Below, one piece after another: positions 20,557-36,597 of a DNA stretch of 36,750 nucleotides (position 1 is the stretch's first letter; the number at the start of each line of letters is the position of its first letter). The notes under the pieces were generated by a model, which worked only from the letters and a program-made list of their open reading frames with translations, was not told the origin of the DNA and made no database searches. The stretch is from Thermoanaerobacterales bacterium. Its GTDB lineage: Bacteria; Actinomycetota; Acidimicrobiia; Acidimicrobiales; VFJN01. The DNA lies in assembly GCA_017577565.1 (NCBI GenBank), contig PKRH01000016.1, forward strand, positions 1-36,750, written 5' to 3'. The translations under genes and the position numbers were made by a program.

Positions 20557-20583
20557 AAAGTTGATACCTAAGCGCTCAACTTT
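20557..20583. promoter_or_regulatory. HAIR-type HspR operator upstream of clpB
   Basis: A 27 bp perfect inverted repeat: AAAGTTGA, 11 nt, TCAACTTT. In HAIR layout it reads GTTGATA-N7-GCTCAAC, against the known HspR consensus CTTGAGT-N7-ACTCAAG. The same 27 bp design with AAAGTTG/CAACTTT ends stands before dnaK. It covers about -26 to -52 relative to the proposed clpB transcription start, a repressing position. The Wzc-like gene ends 7 bp away. Confidence 0.85.
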
Positions 20584-20590
20584 TGGTGGT

Positions 20591-22336
20591 TCAGTCCCCC
20601 GCCCGGGGCTGGGCGACCGGGGCCCACTCGGCGTCCGGGTCGCCCTCGTCGTCCCAGCCGCGCCCGTGGCGACCGTTGCTCGGCGCGCCCCGCCGGCTGG
20701 CGTGGCGGGCCGGCGTGCTGACCGCCTCGTAGCGGTAGGGCTCGCCACTGAAGGTCTCCTCCGCCGACAGGCTGTTCATCACCGTGCCCATGAGCGGCGC
20801 GTCCATCTGGCGCAGCAGCTCGACCGCCCGGGTGAGGCTGCGCTTCGAGGTCTTGTTGGCCGAGGTGACCAGCAGGGTCGTGTCGGCCATGCGGGCGAGC
20901 ACCAGCGCGTCGCTGACCGGCAGCACCGGCGGGCTGTCGACCACGACGACGTCGTAGGTCTGGCCCAGCACGTCGATGAGCCGGCGGGCGCGCTCGCCGC
21001 TCAGCAGCTCCGACGGGTTCGGCGGCGGCTGCCCCGCGGGCAGCACCGACAGGTTGGGCACCGCCGGCGCCGACTGGATGGCCTGGGGCAGGGTCACGTC
21101 GCCGATGAGCACGGCCGTGAGCCCCGGCGTCAGCGGCACCTCGAGCACCTCCTCCATGCGGGGGCGCCGCAGGTCGCCGCCGACGATGACGACCCGGTCG
21201 CCGGCCTGGGCGAAGGCGACGGCCAGGTTGACCGCCACCATCGTCTTGCCCTCGCCGGGCGACGGGCTGGTGACCTGCACGACCCGCACCTGGCGCTCGA
21301 CGCCGAGGAACTTGACCGACGTCCGCAGCATGCGGAACGCCTCGGCCGCCGGCGCCGTCGGGTGGGTGGCAGTCACGAGGTCGTCCTGACCCTCGATCTT
21401 GGGGATGAGGCCCAGGGTGGCGACGCCGGTGACCCGCTCGGCCATCTCCTTCGTCTTCACCGAGTCGTCGAAGTAGTCGCGGACGAAGGCCAGGACCGCG
21501 CCGAGGAAGAGGCCGAACACCAGGCCGATCGCCAGGTTCAGCGGGATGTTGCGGTTGACCGGCGTGTCGGGCGCCCAGGCCGGGCTGAGCAGCTCGGCCC
21601 CGCCGCCGGGCGCGAGCTCGATGCCGAGGTTCAGGTCGCCGAGGAGGTTGCGGATCTCCGAGGCCTGCGACTGGAGCGGCTGGAGCTCCGGGGCCAGGCC
21701 CTCCATGGTCGCCTCGCGCTGGGCGAGCAGCGTGGCCGGGTCGCCCCGCCCCTCGGCGATCTGGGCGTCGATCTCCCGGACCGGCGCCATGACCTCCTCG
21801 ATGCGCTGCTCGGTCTCGCGCAGCAGCGAGTTGAGGCGCTCCTTGGTGGTGAGGAGCGCCTCCTGGTCCTTGGCGGCCCGCAGCGAGACGTAGGTGCGGG
21901 CGTAGGTGTTGACGAGGGTGGCCGCCGCCGCCGGGTCGGTGGAGACGAGCGACAGCTCGACGATGCTGCTCGTCTTGTTGGGGTCGCCCCGCTTGACCTC
22001 GGTGACGTTGACCCGCCACACGTCGCTGTCGGGCAGCGAGCCGTCGTAGGCGCGCGCCACCGCGGCCCGCACCTCGGACGAGCCGACGTAGGTGAGCTGG
22101 TTGACCGCCTGGCGCTCCAGGTCGACGCTGCCGGAGGCGCCGAAGATCATGGCGACGTGGTCGGCGGCGCCGGTCGTCGACACCTGGGCCCGGACCCGGT
22201 ACTGGGGCTCGGGGATGATCGAGACCGCGACCGCCACCCCCACGCAGAGCACGGTGGTCAGGATGACCAGCCACCGCCGACGGGCGATGACCCCCAGATA
22301 GGACCTGAGGTCCGGCTCCTCCAGCTGCGGGTCCAT
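20591..22336 (-). CDS. Wzc-like polysaccharide chain-length/BY-kinase-type protein
   Basis: This 581-residue protein joins a Wzz chain-length domain to a BY-kinase-type ATPase and should sit in the inner membrane controlling polysaccharide polymerisation and export. TM1 is at 22-41 and TM2 at 265-285, with a mostly helical extracytoplasmic region between (coiled coil about 155-230). The cytoplasmic ATPase has Walker A SPSPGEGKT (357-365) and Walker B YDVVVVDSPP, but Walker A' reads VVIVGGDLRRP: the usual first Asp of DxD is Gly386. The C-terminal tail has only two tyrosines (534, 536), not a cluster. The ATG at 22336 follows TACGCT by 9 nt; ATG 22354 and GTG 22366 in frame are possible alternatives. 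It is convergent with nothing and divergent from the first ligase gene. Confidence 0.88.
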   Translation of the reverse strand: MDPQLEEPDLRSYLGVIARRRWLVILTTVLCVGVAVAVSIIPEPQYRVRAQVSTTGAADHVAMIFGASGSVDLERQAVNQLTYVGSSEVRAAVARAYDGSLPDSDVWRVNVTEVKRGDPNKTSSIVELSLVSTDPAAAATLVNTYARTYVSLRAAKDQEALLTTKERLNSLLRETEQRIEEVMAPVREIDAQIAEGRGDPATLLAQREATMEGLAPELQPLQSQASEIRNLLGDLNLGIELAPGGGAELLSPAWAPDTPVNRNIPLNLAIGLVFGLFLGAVLAFVRDYFDDSVKTKEMAERVTGVATLGLIPKIEGQDDLVTATHPTAPAAEAFRMLRTSVKFLGVERQVRVVQVTSPSPGEGKTMVAVNLAVAFAQAGDRVVIVGGDLRRPRMEEVLEVPLTPGLTAVLIGDVTLPQAIQSAPAVPNLSVLPAGQPPPNPSELLSGERARRLIDVLGQTYDVVVVDSPPVLPVSDALVLARMADTTLLVTSANKTSKRSLTRAVELLRQMDAPLMGTVMNSLSAEETFSGEPYRYEAVSTPARHASRRGAPSNGRHGRGWDDEGDPDAEWAPVAQPRAGD

Positions 22337-22409
22337 CGGCGGAGCAGCGTACATGTCCCCCGTCACCCCAACCAGCGGTCGTGTGGCCGGCGGGGACGGT
22401 GAGCGGTGC

Positions 22410-22415
22410 TACCGT
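22410..22415 (+). promoter_or_regulatory. -10 box, first O-antigen ligase-like gene
   Basis: TACCGT, 32 nt upstream of ATG 22448, with a GGGGAG ribosome binding site between. The same hexamer and layout precede the paralogous gene at 23939. Confidence 0.45.
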
Positions 22416-34670: not shown

Positions 34671-36505
34671 TTCTCGTCCTCGTCGACGATCTCGGCGTCG
34701 ACCACCTCGTCATCCGACGGCTGGCTGGCACCGGCGCCGGCGCTGCCGCCGGACGCGGTGCTCTCGGAGGCCGCGGCCTCGTAGAGCTTCTGGGTGAAGC
34801 TCTGGCTGGCGGCCATCAGGGCGTCGGTGGCGTTGCGGATCGCCTCGACGTCGCTGCCCGCCAGCGCGCCCTTGAGGTCGCCCAGCTTGGCCTCGACGGC
34901 CGACTTCTCCTCGCCCGAGATCTTGTCGCCCTGCTCCTTGAGCAGCTTCTCGGTCTGGTAGACGAGCGTGTCGGCCTGGTTGCGGACCTCGGCCTCCTCG
35001 CGGCGCCGCCGGTCCTCCTCGGCGTGGGCCTCGGCGTCCCGGATCATCCGGTCGATCTCCTCCTTGGAGAGCGCCGACTGACCGGTGATCGTCATCGACT
35101 GCTCCTTGCCGGTGGCCCGGTCCTTGGCGGACACGTGGACGATGCCGTTGGCGTCGATGTCGAAGGTGACCTCGATCTGCGGCACGCCACGCGGCGCCGG
35201 GGGCAGGTCGACGAGCTGGAACTTGCCCAGCGTCTTGTTGAACTGGGCCATCTCGCGCTCGCCCTGCAGCACGTGGATCTCGACCGACGGCTGGTTGTCC
35301 TCCGCGGTGGTGAACACCTCGGTGCGCTTGGTCGGGATCGTCGTGTTGCGCTCGATGAGCTTGGTCATCACGCCGCCCTTCGTCTCGATGCCGAGCGACA
35401 GGGGCGTGACGTCGAGCAGCAGGACGTCCTTGACCTCGCCCTTCAGCACGCCGGCCTGGATGGCGGCGCCGACGGCGACGACCTCGTCGGGGTTGACGCC
35501 CTTGTGCGGCTCCTTGCCGGTGAGCTCCTGGACCAGGTCCTGGACCGCCGGCATGCGGGTCGAGCCGCCGACCAGGATGACGTGGTCGAGGTCGCTCTTC
35601 GTCAGGCCGGCGTCCTTGATGGCCTGCTCGAAGGGGCCGCGCAGCCGCTCGAGCAGGTCGGCCGTCAGCTCCTGGAACTTGGCCCGGGTGAGGGTCTCGT
35701 CGAGGTGCAGCGGCCCCTCGCTGGTGGCGGTGATGAACGGCAGGTTGATCTGCGTCTGCTGGACCTGCGACAGCTCGATCTTGGCCTTCTCGGCGGCCTC
35801 CTTGAGCCGCTGCATGGCCATGTTGTCGGTCGACAGGTCGACGTTGTGGGCCGCCTTGAACTGGTTGACCAGCCAGTCGATGATCCGCTGGTCCCAGTCG
35901 TCGCCGCCCAGGTGCGTGTCGCCGTGGGTGGCCTTGACCTCGAAGACGCCCTCGCCGATCTCGAGGATCGACACGTCGAAGGTGCCGCCGCCGAGGTCGA
36001 ACACGAGGACGGTCTGGTCGGCGCCCTCCTTGTCGAGCCCGTAGGCGAGCGCGGCCGCGGTCGGCTCGTTGATGATGCGCAGCACCTCGAGGCCGGCGAT
36101 CTGGCCGGCCTCCTTGGTGGCGGTGCGCTGGGCGTCGTCGAAGTAGGCGGGGACGGTGATGACCGCCTGGGTCACGGTGTCACCCAGGTAGGCCTCGGCG
36201 TCGCGCTTCAGCTTCTGCAGGGTGCGGGCCGAGATCTCCTGCGCGGTGTAGTCCTTGCCGTCGATCCCGATCGTCCACCTGGTGCCCATGTGCCGCTTCA
36301 CCGAGCGGATGGTGCGATCGGGGTTGGTGATGGCCTGGCGCTTGGCCACCTCGCCGACGAGCACCTCGCCGTTCTTCGAGAAGGCGACGACCGAGGGCGT
36401 GGTGCGCGAGCCCTCGGCGTTGGGGATGACGACCGGGTCGCCCGCCTCGAGGACGGCGACGACGGAGTTGGTCGTACCGAGGTCGATGCCGACAGCCTTG
36501 GGCAT
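34667..36505 (-). CDS. dnaK: Chaperone DnaK (Hsp70)
   Basis: DnaK (612 residues) is the ATP-driven Hsp70 that binds unfolded chains. The ATPase domain has [58 protein letters not shown] and [16 protein letters not shown]; the linker [16 protein letters not shown] and substrate domain with [21 protein letters not shown] follow; the helical lid ends with [13 protein letters not shown], the usual acidic tail. ATG 36505 was chosen because it begins at the family N-terminus with GGAGG 8 nt upstream; the open frame beyond it is the untranslated leader. It heads dnaK-grpE-dnaJ-hspR, under a promoter overlapped by a HAIR-type operator. Confidence 0.98.
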
Positions 36506-36564
36506 GGGAAGGGCCTCCGTGGGGGTACTGGTCGGTTGGGGAGATCGTCTTTCAGCTGGGGCCC

Positions 36565-36593
36565 ACGATAAAAGTTGAGTGCGGTATTCGCAA
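36565..36593 (-). promoter_or_regulatory. Promoter of the dnaK operon
   Basis: On the minus strand TTGCGA (36593-36588) and TATCGT (36570-36565) are separated by exactly 17 nt, a good primary-sigma promoter. Transcription would begin near 36558, leaving a 53-nt leader with a GGAGG site before ATG 36505. Confidence 0.7.
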
Positions 36594-36597
36594 CTTT
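36571..36597. promoter_or_regulatory. HAIR-type HspR operator upstream of dnaK
   Basis: A 27 bp inverted repeat: AAAGTTG at 36571-36577 and CAACTTT at 36591-36597. In HAIR layout it reads GTTGAGT-N7-TCGCAAC. It covers the -35 hexamer and the promoter spacer, so bound HspR would occlude RNA polymerase. The clpB site has the same length and the same outer arms. Confidence 0.87.

What the first reader, a model, noticed from the sequence alone, without database searches (positions are those of the whole stretch)
20557..36597. Two matching 27 bp variant HAIR operators link clpB and the dnaK operon to HspR
The repeats before clpB (20557-20583) and dnaK (36571-36597) have the same 27 bp length and the same AAAGTTG...CAACTTT ends, and fit the HAIR 7-7-7 layout. 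Compared with the known consensus CTTGAGT-N7-ACTCAAG, the outermost bases are G and C instead of C and G, and AAA/TTT flanks are shared. These are also the AT-richest spots in their surroundings. The HspR encoded at 32407-32796 probably recognises this altered site, suggesting a lineage-specific HspR recognition.
Basis: partly seen in the sequence, partly recalled or inferred. Interest (0 to 1): 0.7.

Follow-up and report, generated by a model that had tools for sequence, protein, structure and literature searches.

The report
HspR heat-shock operators before clpB, dnaK
Two nearly identical DNA switches before heat-shock genes of an actinobacterium look like ordinary binding sites for the heat-shock repressor HspR; the letters that seemed unusual fall within the published pattern, and what is mildly new is how tightly the switches are merged with the promoters they control.

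Summary
In detail: AAAGTTG-N13-CAACTTT stands at 20557-20583, 25 bp before clpB, and at 36571-36597, 65 bp before dnaK-grpE-dnaJ-hspR. In the window's own 3.43 Mb assembly the pattern AAASTTGA-N11-TCAASTTT (up to 3 mismatches) occurs at four places, before clpB, dnaK, lon and, weakly, hsp20; the reversed control occurs at none. The HspR link is well supported. The claim of an altered, lineage-specific site is not: the outer base is G or C in either orientation across the order, differs within the window's own family, and it and the AAA/TTT flanks are in the published Bifidobacterium HAIR consensus. The real peculiarity is inside the arms: each site has one canonical half (TTGAGY) and one degenerate half. 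At dnaK the degenerate half sits at the -35 position of the promoter; at clpB the site ends just upstream of a -10 placed for a leaderless mRNA. In some relatives the left arm also carries the -10 of a SigH/SigR-type promoter. So: a known HspR/HAIR regulon in a little-studied group, with compact operator-promoter fusion. HspR binding itself is untested.

The parts
20557..20583 (-). clpB operator (HAIR), gene orientation AAAG TTGAGC GCTTAGG TATCAA CTTT: canonical left half, degenerate right half (TATCAA = reverse complement of TTGATA)
20538..20543 (-). inferred clpB -10 (TAGCCT), 17 bp after the operator's right half and 6 bp before the ATG: predicted leaderless mRNA
   Evidence: sequence; same spacing in G001 and G004 of the same family; order-level counts
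18024..20531 (-). clpB, 835 aa
   Evidence: TIGR03346 over cut-off
36571..36597 (-). dnaK operator (HAIR), gene orientation AAAG TTGCGA ATACCGC ACTCAA CTTT: degenerate left half, canonical right half
36588..36593 (-). inferred -35 (TTGCGA) = left half of the dnaK operator
   Evidence: position relative to the -10; order-level register
36565..36570 (-). inferred dnaK -10 (TATCGT), 17 bp after the left half
36514..36518 (-). Shine-Dalgarno-like GGAGG of dnaK
   Evidence: sequence
34667..36505 (-). dnaK, 612 aa
   Evidence: NF001413 over cut-off
33963..34670 (-). grpE, GTG start overlapping the dnaK stop
   Evidence: ORF; PF01025 81 bits on its 207-aa N-terminal part
32810..33937 (-). dnaJ
   Evidence: TIGR02349 over cut-off
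32407..32796 (-). hspR, 129 aa, MerR-type repressor, last gene of the dnaK operon (13 bp after dnaJ)
   Evidence: NF047375 124.9 bits, cut-off 105

Best explanation
Both repeats are HAIR-type operators of the HspR encoded in the same window. At normal temperature an HspR dimer sits on each site and blocks RNA polymerase; heat or misfolded protein releases it (DnaK as co-repressor is described for mycobacteria in PMC10415612, not tested here), so clpB and the autoregulated dnaK-grpE-dnaJ-hspR operon switch on together, with lon and perhaps hsp20. The operators are fused with the promoters. At dnaK the left half is at the -35 position and the site reaches to the edge of the -10. At clpB the site covers the -35 region, and the -10 lies 6 bp before the ATG, so the mRNA is probably leaderless. 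The departures from the Streptomyces consensus lie in one inner half-site; at dnaK this coincides with the -35 box, and the outer G/C is free to be either. Shown: sequences, positions, gene identities, genome-wide specificity, conservation of the registers. Inferred: binding, repression, promoter use.
For: Genome-wide specificity: the 4 places of AAASTTGA-N11-TCAASTTT within 3 mismatches in the assembly (0, 1, 1, 3) are at clpB, dnaK, lon and hsp20; control 0 (genes). Across 59 genomes of the order the same pattern with up to 1 mismatch has 40 places in 27 genomes against 4 control places, and 35 of the 40 lie within 200 bp upstream of dnaK, clpB or lon (my reading). 99 of 112 distinct dnaK upstreams and 58 of 91 clpB upstreams hold a site scoring at least 12 of 16, against 2 and 1 after one base shuffle each. 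Promoter fusion: a TANNNT hexamer begins 17-19 bp after the left half in 74 of 99 dnaK sites, against 0-7 of 99 for 21 control offset triplets. In clpB TANNNT follows the right half by 16-19 bp in 24 of 58, and ends 6-7 nt before the start codon in 19 of 58, against 0 of 99 dnaK sites and 0 of 33 clpB upstreams without a site. The family members G001 and G004 keep the clpB spacing exactly. An HspR-type match was found in 51 of 51 genomes of the phylum that were searched.
Against: No binding, footprint, expression or start-site data exist for this organism in what I could search. Each site has two mismatches to the minimal consensus TTGAGYN7ACTCAA in one half. 13 of 112 dnaK and 33 of 91 clpB upstreams in the order have no site at the chosen score, and 32 of 59 order genomes have no place with up to 1 mismatch. 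At 3 mismatches the pattern is specific in the window's genome (4 against 0) but not in its relatives: G001 4 against 1, G002 9 against 6, G003 6 against 7, G004 2 against 1, G005 11 against 7, G006 1 against 0. The cut-off of 12 of 16 was set after seeing the data, and the score itself rewards the arms and the outer G/C. With an independent anchor the exact AAA flank is present in only 26 of 96 dnaK sites and TTT in 61 of 96. Related genomes are not independent observations. 38 of 58 clpB upstreams with a site also have some SD-like tetramer, so leaderless translation is a prediction for a subset. The hsp20 site is weak.
Confidence: 0.92

Rival explanations
1. One reading: the outer G...C (instead of C...G) plus AAA/TTT flanks define an altered HspR site that a lineage-specific HspR recognises.
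For: Both window sites share these letters exactly; flank letters are enriched across the order.
Against: Outer base is G or C in either orientation: with an anchor that ignores it, dnaK left G 55, C 38, A 3 and right G 46, C 44, T 5, A 1 of 96; clpB left G 18, C 11, A 2 and right G 17, C 14 of 31. It switches within the family and within the genome's own lon site, CTTGAG on one side and CTCAAC on the other. A consensus with 's' there and AAA/TTTT flanks is already published for Bifidobacterium (PMC9004370). The recognition helix is not special to the lineage.
Confidence: 0.04
2. Real but different change: in HspR lineages whose helix reads TLR-[I/M/V]-YE, one half-site may be TTGAYA-like, whereas lineages with TLR-[Q/T/A]-Y use TTGAGY in both halves; the repressor's inner base preference differs.
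For: dnaK left half against helix: all 11 Q/T/A genomes with a scored site have G at the fifth base (9 strictly TTGAGY; G134 CTGAGT and G072 CTGCGT; two more had no site), while 34 other genomes have a half ending in A or in TG (TTGAYA-like). In clpB, where the right half cannot be read as a TTGACA box for clpB, Acidimicrobiales right halves are often TGTCAA or TATCAA (15 and 11 of 58; ACTCAA 10), while the 7 Q/T genomes with a site have TTGAGY in 14 of 14 halves.
Against: Three genomes of one clade (G012, G128, G149) have I with TTGAGT, and the window's own dnaK half TTGCGA fits neither class. At most 3 independent changes, 1 on well-supported branches, so no significance is attainable. At dnaK the -35 box explains the same letters. 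The right half stays mostly ACTCAA or GCTCAA at dnaK in the order (80 of 99). Most I/M/V genomes outside the order have no clpB site to compare.
Confidence: 0.3
3. The palindromes are mainly promoter elements or sites of another regulator, and HspR is not involved.
For: Left halves at dnaK sit at the -35 position.
Against: A bare promoter would not conserve the right arm: at dnaK the letters CTCA of ACTCAA are 97-100% conserved, the C at position 19 without being part of the anchor; nor would the same palindrome recur at clpB in a different promoter register. The motif matches the HspR operator consensus of S. coelicolor (PMC2687793) and Bifidobacterium (PMC9004370); the groEL gene instead has two CIRCE elements.
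Confidence: 0.03

Closest known systems
HspR/HAIR regulon of Streptomyces coelicolor (dnaK, clpB, lon; TTGAGYN7ACTCAA)
   Same: Repressor family, gene targets (dnaK operon with hspR last, clpB, lon), 19-bp core layout.
   Different: One half of each window site is degenerate (TTGATA, TTGCGA) and at dnaK coincides with the -35 position; one site found at dnaK, where S. coelicolor has three copies (passage in PMC6102357).
Bifidobacterium HAIR consensus AAAsTTGAGysw-N6-CTCAAsTTTT (Zomer et al., quoted in PMC9004370)
   Same: Same outer S base and AAA/TTT flanks as the window sites; clpB and dnaK targets.
   Different: Inner TTGAGY kept in that consensus; the clgR target listed there was not looked for here.
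M. tuberculosis clpB: HspR site overlapping a SigH promoter (PMC4803200)
   Same: Operator overlaps a GGAAY-N17/18-GTT-type promoter; seen here at dnaK/clpB of some relatives, and side by side at lon of the window genome.
   Different: Register differs: in 7 of 8 actinomycete-type genomes GGAAY lies in the clpB operator spacer, in some Acidimicrobiales the left arm's GTT is the -10. The window's own clpB and dnaK sites lack it.
HrcA/CIRCE
   Same: Parallel heat-shock repressor system; CIRCE elements stand before groEL of this genome.
   Different: Different motif (TTAGCACTC-N9-GAGTGCTAA) and target.

Membership tests
HspR repressor family (NF047375) | profile score over the curated cut-off | tested here: met
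   124.9 bits against 105
HspR repressor family (NF047375) | gene in the dnaK operon | tested here: met
   dnaK-grpE-dnaJ-hspR with short or overlapping junctions
HspR repressor family (NF047375) | autoregulation | not testable with these tools
   inferred only from the site before dnaK
HAIR operator | minimal consensus TTGAGY-N7-ACTCAA | tested here: inconclusive
   each site has one perfect half and two mismatches in the other (sequence)
HAIR operator | extended ends AAAS...STTT of the Bifidobacterium consensus | tested here: met
   exact at both sites; consensus from PMC9004370
HAIR operator | located at heat-shock promoters and rare elsewhere | tested here: met
   4 of 4 places in the window's assembly, 35 of 40 in 59 genomes of the order; at 3 mismatches not specific in several family members
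HAIR operator | bound by HspR in vitro and in vivo | not testable with these tools
   needs EMSA, footprint or ChIP
SigH/SigR-type promoter overlapping the operator | GGAAY-N18-GTT at the window's two sites | tested here: not met
   no match upstream of window clpB or dnaK; present beside the lon site, GGGAAT-N18-GTT

The most novel reading that the evidence does not exclude
In Acidimicrobiia and other actinobacterial lineages outside the Streptomyces/mycobacteria type, HspR reads a two-faced operator, one half TTGAGY and one half TTGAYA, which lets one half serve as the -35 box of a house-keeping promoter and, in some genera, the outer GTT serve as the -10 of a SigH/SigR-type stress promoter; the residue after TLR in the HspR recognition helix (I/M/V against Q/T/A) changed along with the inner two bases.
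Probability: 0.3. Interest if true: 0.45.

Novelty: new member of a known kind. Interest (0 to 1): 0.3.

Why it matters
It extends the HspR/HAIR regulon to a little-studied order (Acidimicrobiales) with a usable search pattern and predicted promoters, and it shows that what looks like operator divergence can be a promoter element read on the same letters. The helix-to-half-site comparison gives a concrete, cheap test of how a MerR-type repressor chooses its inner bases.

Tried and rejected
Scanning the genome with the canonical 19-mer alone: too unspecific in this GC-rich genome (8 places against 5 control); one of those 8 overlaps a CIRCE element before groEL.

Outer-base G as a requirement of the SigH-type -10: of the 20 sites with GGAAY exactly 20 bp before the operator start (11 of 99 dnaK, 9 of 58 clpB), 16 have G and 4 have C at position 4; no enrichment at dnaK (7 of 11 against 63 of 99 overall), so this does not explain the letter in general, and the window's own two sites lack the GGAAY.

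Window sites as SigH-type promoters: no GGAAY-N18-GTT there.

Rfam scan of the window: 0 matches at gathering score.

PDB search with HspR: 16 sequences up to E 1e-6, named as other MerR-family proteins (MerR, GlnR, CueR and others), none named HspR.

Statistical test of helix against half-site on an HspR tree: at most 3 independent changes, no significance possible; the tree is poorly resolved (32 of 55 inner branches open). The script counted the window's own TTGCGA as G-type; I treat it as neither.

Rows dropped: clpB upstreams were fetched for 44 of the 51 order genomes with a hit; of 80 named HspR loci 58 gave a dnaK start and 48 a clpB-like start by regular expression; repeated upstreams were merged, leaving 112 and 91. 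Of 23 lon matches, 22 were examined. HspR helices: 86 of 87 Acidimicrobiales loci, 87 of 87 with a looser expression; 45 of 50 other genomes fetched. Two early orientations (L078, L090) were wrong and were corrected.

Papers, what I saw: passages of PMC6102357, PMC10415612, PMC2687793, PMC11754652, PMC4803200, PMC9004370, PMC4681348; search listings. The search for HspR with 'Acidimicrobi' listed one paper, with a single mention of HspR (listing only). I saw no description of HAIR sites in Acidimicrobiia in these searches; the library lacks most subscription journals.
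Full report
What is there. The two sequences are exactly at the stated places. In gene orientation the clpB site reads AAAG TTGAGC GCTTAGG TATCAA CTTT and the dnaK site AAAG TTGCGA ATACCGC ACTCAA CTTT. Both have the outer arms AAAGTTG...CAACTTT, but only one half of each matches the minimal HspR operator TTGAGYN7ACTCAA (PMC2687793, passage): the left half at clpB, the right half at dnaK. The other halves are TTGATA (read on the other strand) and TTGCGA. Chance is excluded within the window (0 in 100 shuffles) and unlikely in the genome: AAASTTGA-N11-TCAASTTT with up to 3 mismatches has 4 places in 3.43 Mb and its reversed control 0.

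Who is next to them. The assembly's four places lie before clpB (0 mismatches), dnaK (1), lon (1; L007/L351) and an hsp20 gene (3; L397). clpB and dnaK are over their curated cut-offs and HspR scores 124.9 against 105. dnaK-grpE-dnaJ-hspR is one tight operon. The groEL gene has two CIRCE elements instead; HrcA itself was not searched for.

Relatives. The 80 best named HspR loci are mostly labelled Acidimicrobiales, Acidimicrobiaceae or Acidimicrobiia, the rest with broader labels such as Actinomycetota and one Acidobacteriota, so the window's order is very probably Acidimicrobiales. In 59 genomes of the order DnaK was found in 56 and ClpB in 51. With the named loci, 112 distinct dnaK and 91 distinct clpB upstream regions were scored; 99 and 58 reach 12 of 16 pattern letters, against 2 and 1 after base shuffling. 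With up to 1 mismatch the pattern has 40 places in 27 of 59 genomes (4 in the control); by the coordinates, 35 of these lie within 200 bp upstream of dnaK, clpB or lon, 5 do not. In the same family, G001 has sites at dnaK, clpB and lon, and G004 has one between hspR and clpB. At 3 mismatches the control is as frequent as the pattern in G003 (7 against 6) and not far below in G002 and G005 (6 against 9, 7 against 11), so weak matches mean little there. In the same-genus genome G006 (67% complete) the only match was not assigned to a gene.

With an anchor that ignores the outer base, it is G or C at 93 of 96 (left) and 90 of 96 (right) dnaK sites and at 29 of 31 and 31 of 31 clpB sites, in all four combinations (with the arm-based anchor 98 and 98 of 99 at dnaK, G/C 35, G/G 28, C/G 19, C/C 15). 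Outside the order the left base is G or C in 45 of 50 and the right in 39 of 50, with A in 10. The exact AAA flank is in 26 of 96 dnaK sites and TTT in 61 of 96, so the flanks are a tendency. Both features are in the Bifidobacterium consensus AAAsTTGAGysw-N6-CTCAAsTTTT (PMC9004370, passage). The window's lon site mixes both letters, and the family member G001 has G on the right at clpB.

Why the inner half deviates. At dnaK a TANNNT hexamer starts 17, 18 or 19 bp after the left half in 74 of 99 sites, against 0 to 7 of 99 for 21 control triplets of offsets, and the left half is most often TTGATA (41) or TTGACA (17). So the left half is at the -35 position and usually resembles a -35 box; in the window TTGCGA-N17-TATCGT. 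At clpB the register is different: TANNNT follows the right half by 16-19 bp in 24 of 58 and ends 6-7 nt before the start codon in 19 of 58, never so at dnaK (0 of 99) or at clpB without a site (0 of 33). In the window this is TATCAA-N17-TAGCCT-N6-ATG, identical in spacing in G001 and G004. The natural reading is a leaderless clpB mRNA with the operator over the -35 region. RNA data are needed.

A second promoter class. GGAAY-N18-GTT, the SigH/SigR-type promoter (the M. tuberculosis form is GGAAYR-N17-GTT, PMC4803200, passage; the SigR form is recalled), occurs in 23 of 112 dnaK and 12 of 91 clpB upstreams (base-shuffled means 0.65 and 0.45; spacer 18 stands out against 14-23, although in clpB spacer 17 has 6). 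GGAAY starts exactly 20 bp before the operator in 11 of 99 dnaK and 9 of 58 clpB sites, other offsets averaging 0.2 and 0.12 with maxima of 2 and 4, apart from a second cluster of 6 at dnaK 39 bp downstream of the operator start; in the first register the operator's own GTT (or CTT in 4) is the -10. Of 22 lon upstreams examined, 20 show GGAAY-N17-to-20-GTT within about 120 bp of the start, 18 of them with a spacer of exactly 18, and only 2 (G000, G009) have a strong HAIR site. In the window genome lon has HAIR followed by GGGAAT-N18-GTT, as does lon of G001. The genome encodes a SigH-like sigma factor just under its family cut-off (248.6 against 251.55) followed by an RsrA-type anti-sigma factor over cut-off. 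Overlap of an HspR site with a SigH promoter is described for clpB of M. tuberculosis (PMC4803200). In the actinomycete-type genomes examined here GGAAY lies in the operator spacer of clpB in 7 of 8 (GTT at 18 in 5, at 19 in one, none in G086). The window's clpB and dnaK sites have no such motif.

Repressor. The helix motif HPQTLRIYE is found in 84 of 87 Acidimicrobiales HspR loci parsed and in other actinobacterial families; Q or T with YD replaces I-YE in Streptomyces-like and mycobacteria-like genomes (names inferred). The residue after TLR goes with the inner letters of the dnaK left half: all 11 Q/T/A genomes with a scored site have G at the fifth base (9 strictly TTGAGY) and 34 others a TTGAYA-like half, with three I-type exceptions from one clade, while the window's own TTGCGA fits neither (counted as G-type by the script). 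The seven Q/T genomes with a clpB site have TTGAGY in 14 of 14 halves. At most three independent changes underlie this, so it is a lead and not a result.

Verdict. These are HspR operators of the HAIR kind. What is mildly new is the operator-promoter fusion in Acidimicrobiales. HspR binding, repression and the promoter starts remain untested.

Noticed in passing
L007 / L351 (G000 contig C44, about 36700-36790): lon of the window genome has a HAIR site directly followed by a SigH/SigR-type promoter GGGAAT-N18-GTT; the same pair occurs at lon of G001. Most other lon upstreams examined in the order (18 of 20 with the motif) have it without a strong HAIR site.
   Followed up: yes
L397 1508-1534 (G000 contig C204): Weak HAIR-like site (3 mismatches) upstream of an hsp20 gene, with GGGAAT just before it.
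   Followed up: partly
window 20529-20543: clpB is predicted to be leaderless (TAGCCT six bases before ATG), a spacing shared by 17 of 58 order-level clpB sites, plus 2 at seven bases.
   Followed up: yes
dnaK upstreams of L111 and named loci L158, L164, L170, L176, L184, L185, L200, L206, L212; also lon in L007: TCGGTGT follows the operator's TTT directly in 10 dnaK rows, each with TANNNT exactly 19 bp after CGGTGT, and 6 of them with GGAAT 5 bp after it. The window genome's lon has TCGGTGT too. Its role is unexplained.
   Followed up: partly
L403 about 908-980 (G000 contig C159): Two CIRCE elements (HrcA operators) before groEL.
   Followed up: partly
window 20591-22366 (-): Upstream neighbour of clpB is a Wzz/ParA-type polysaccharide-chain-length gene; its stop codon ends 7 bp from the clpB operator, and the G001 counterpart looks similar by eye.
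   Followed up: no
G025 contig C14:30189-30215, G026 C19:5949, G057 C55:9477, G041 C17:4118 and C96:2037: Five good pattern matches in the order not upstream of dnaK, clpB or lon; possible further HspR targets or chance (4 control places in the same scan).
   Followed up: no
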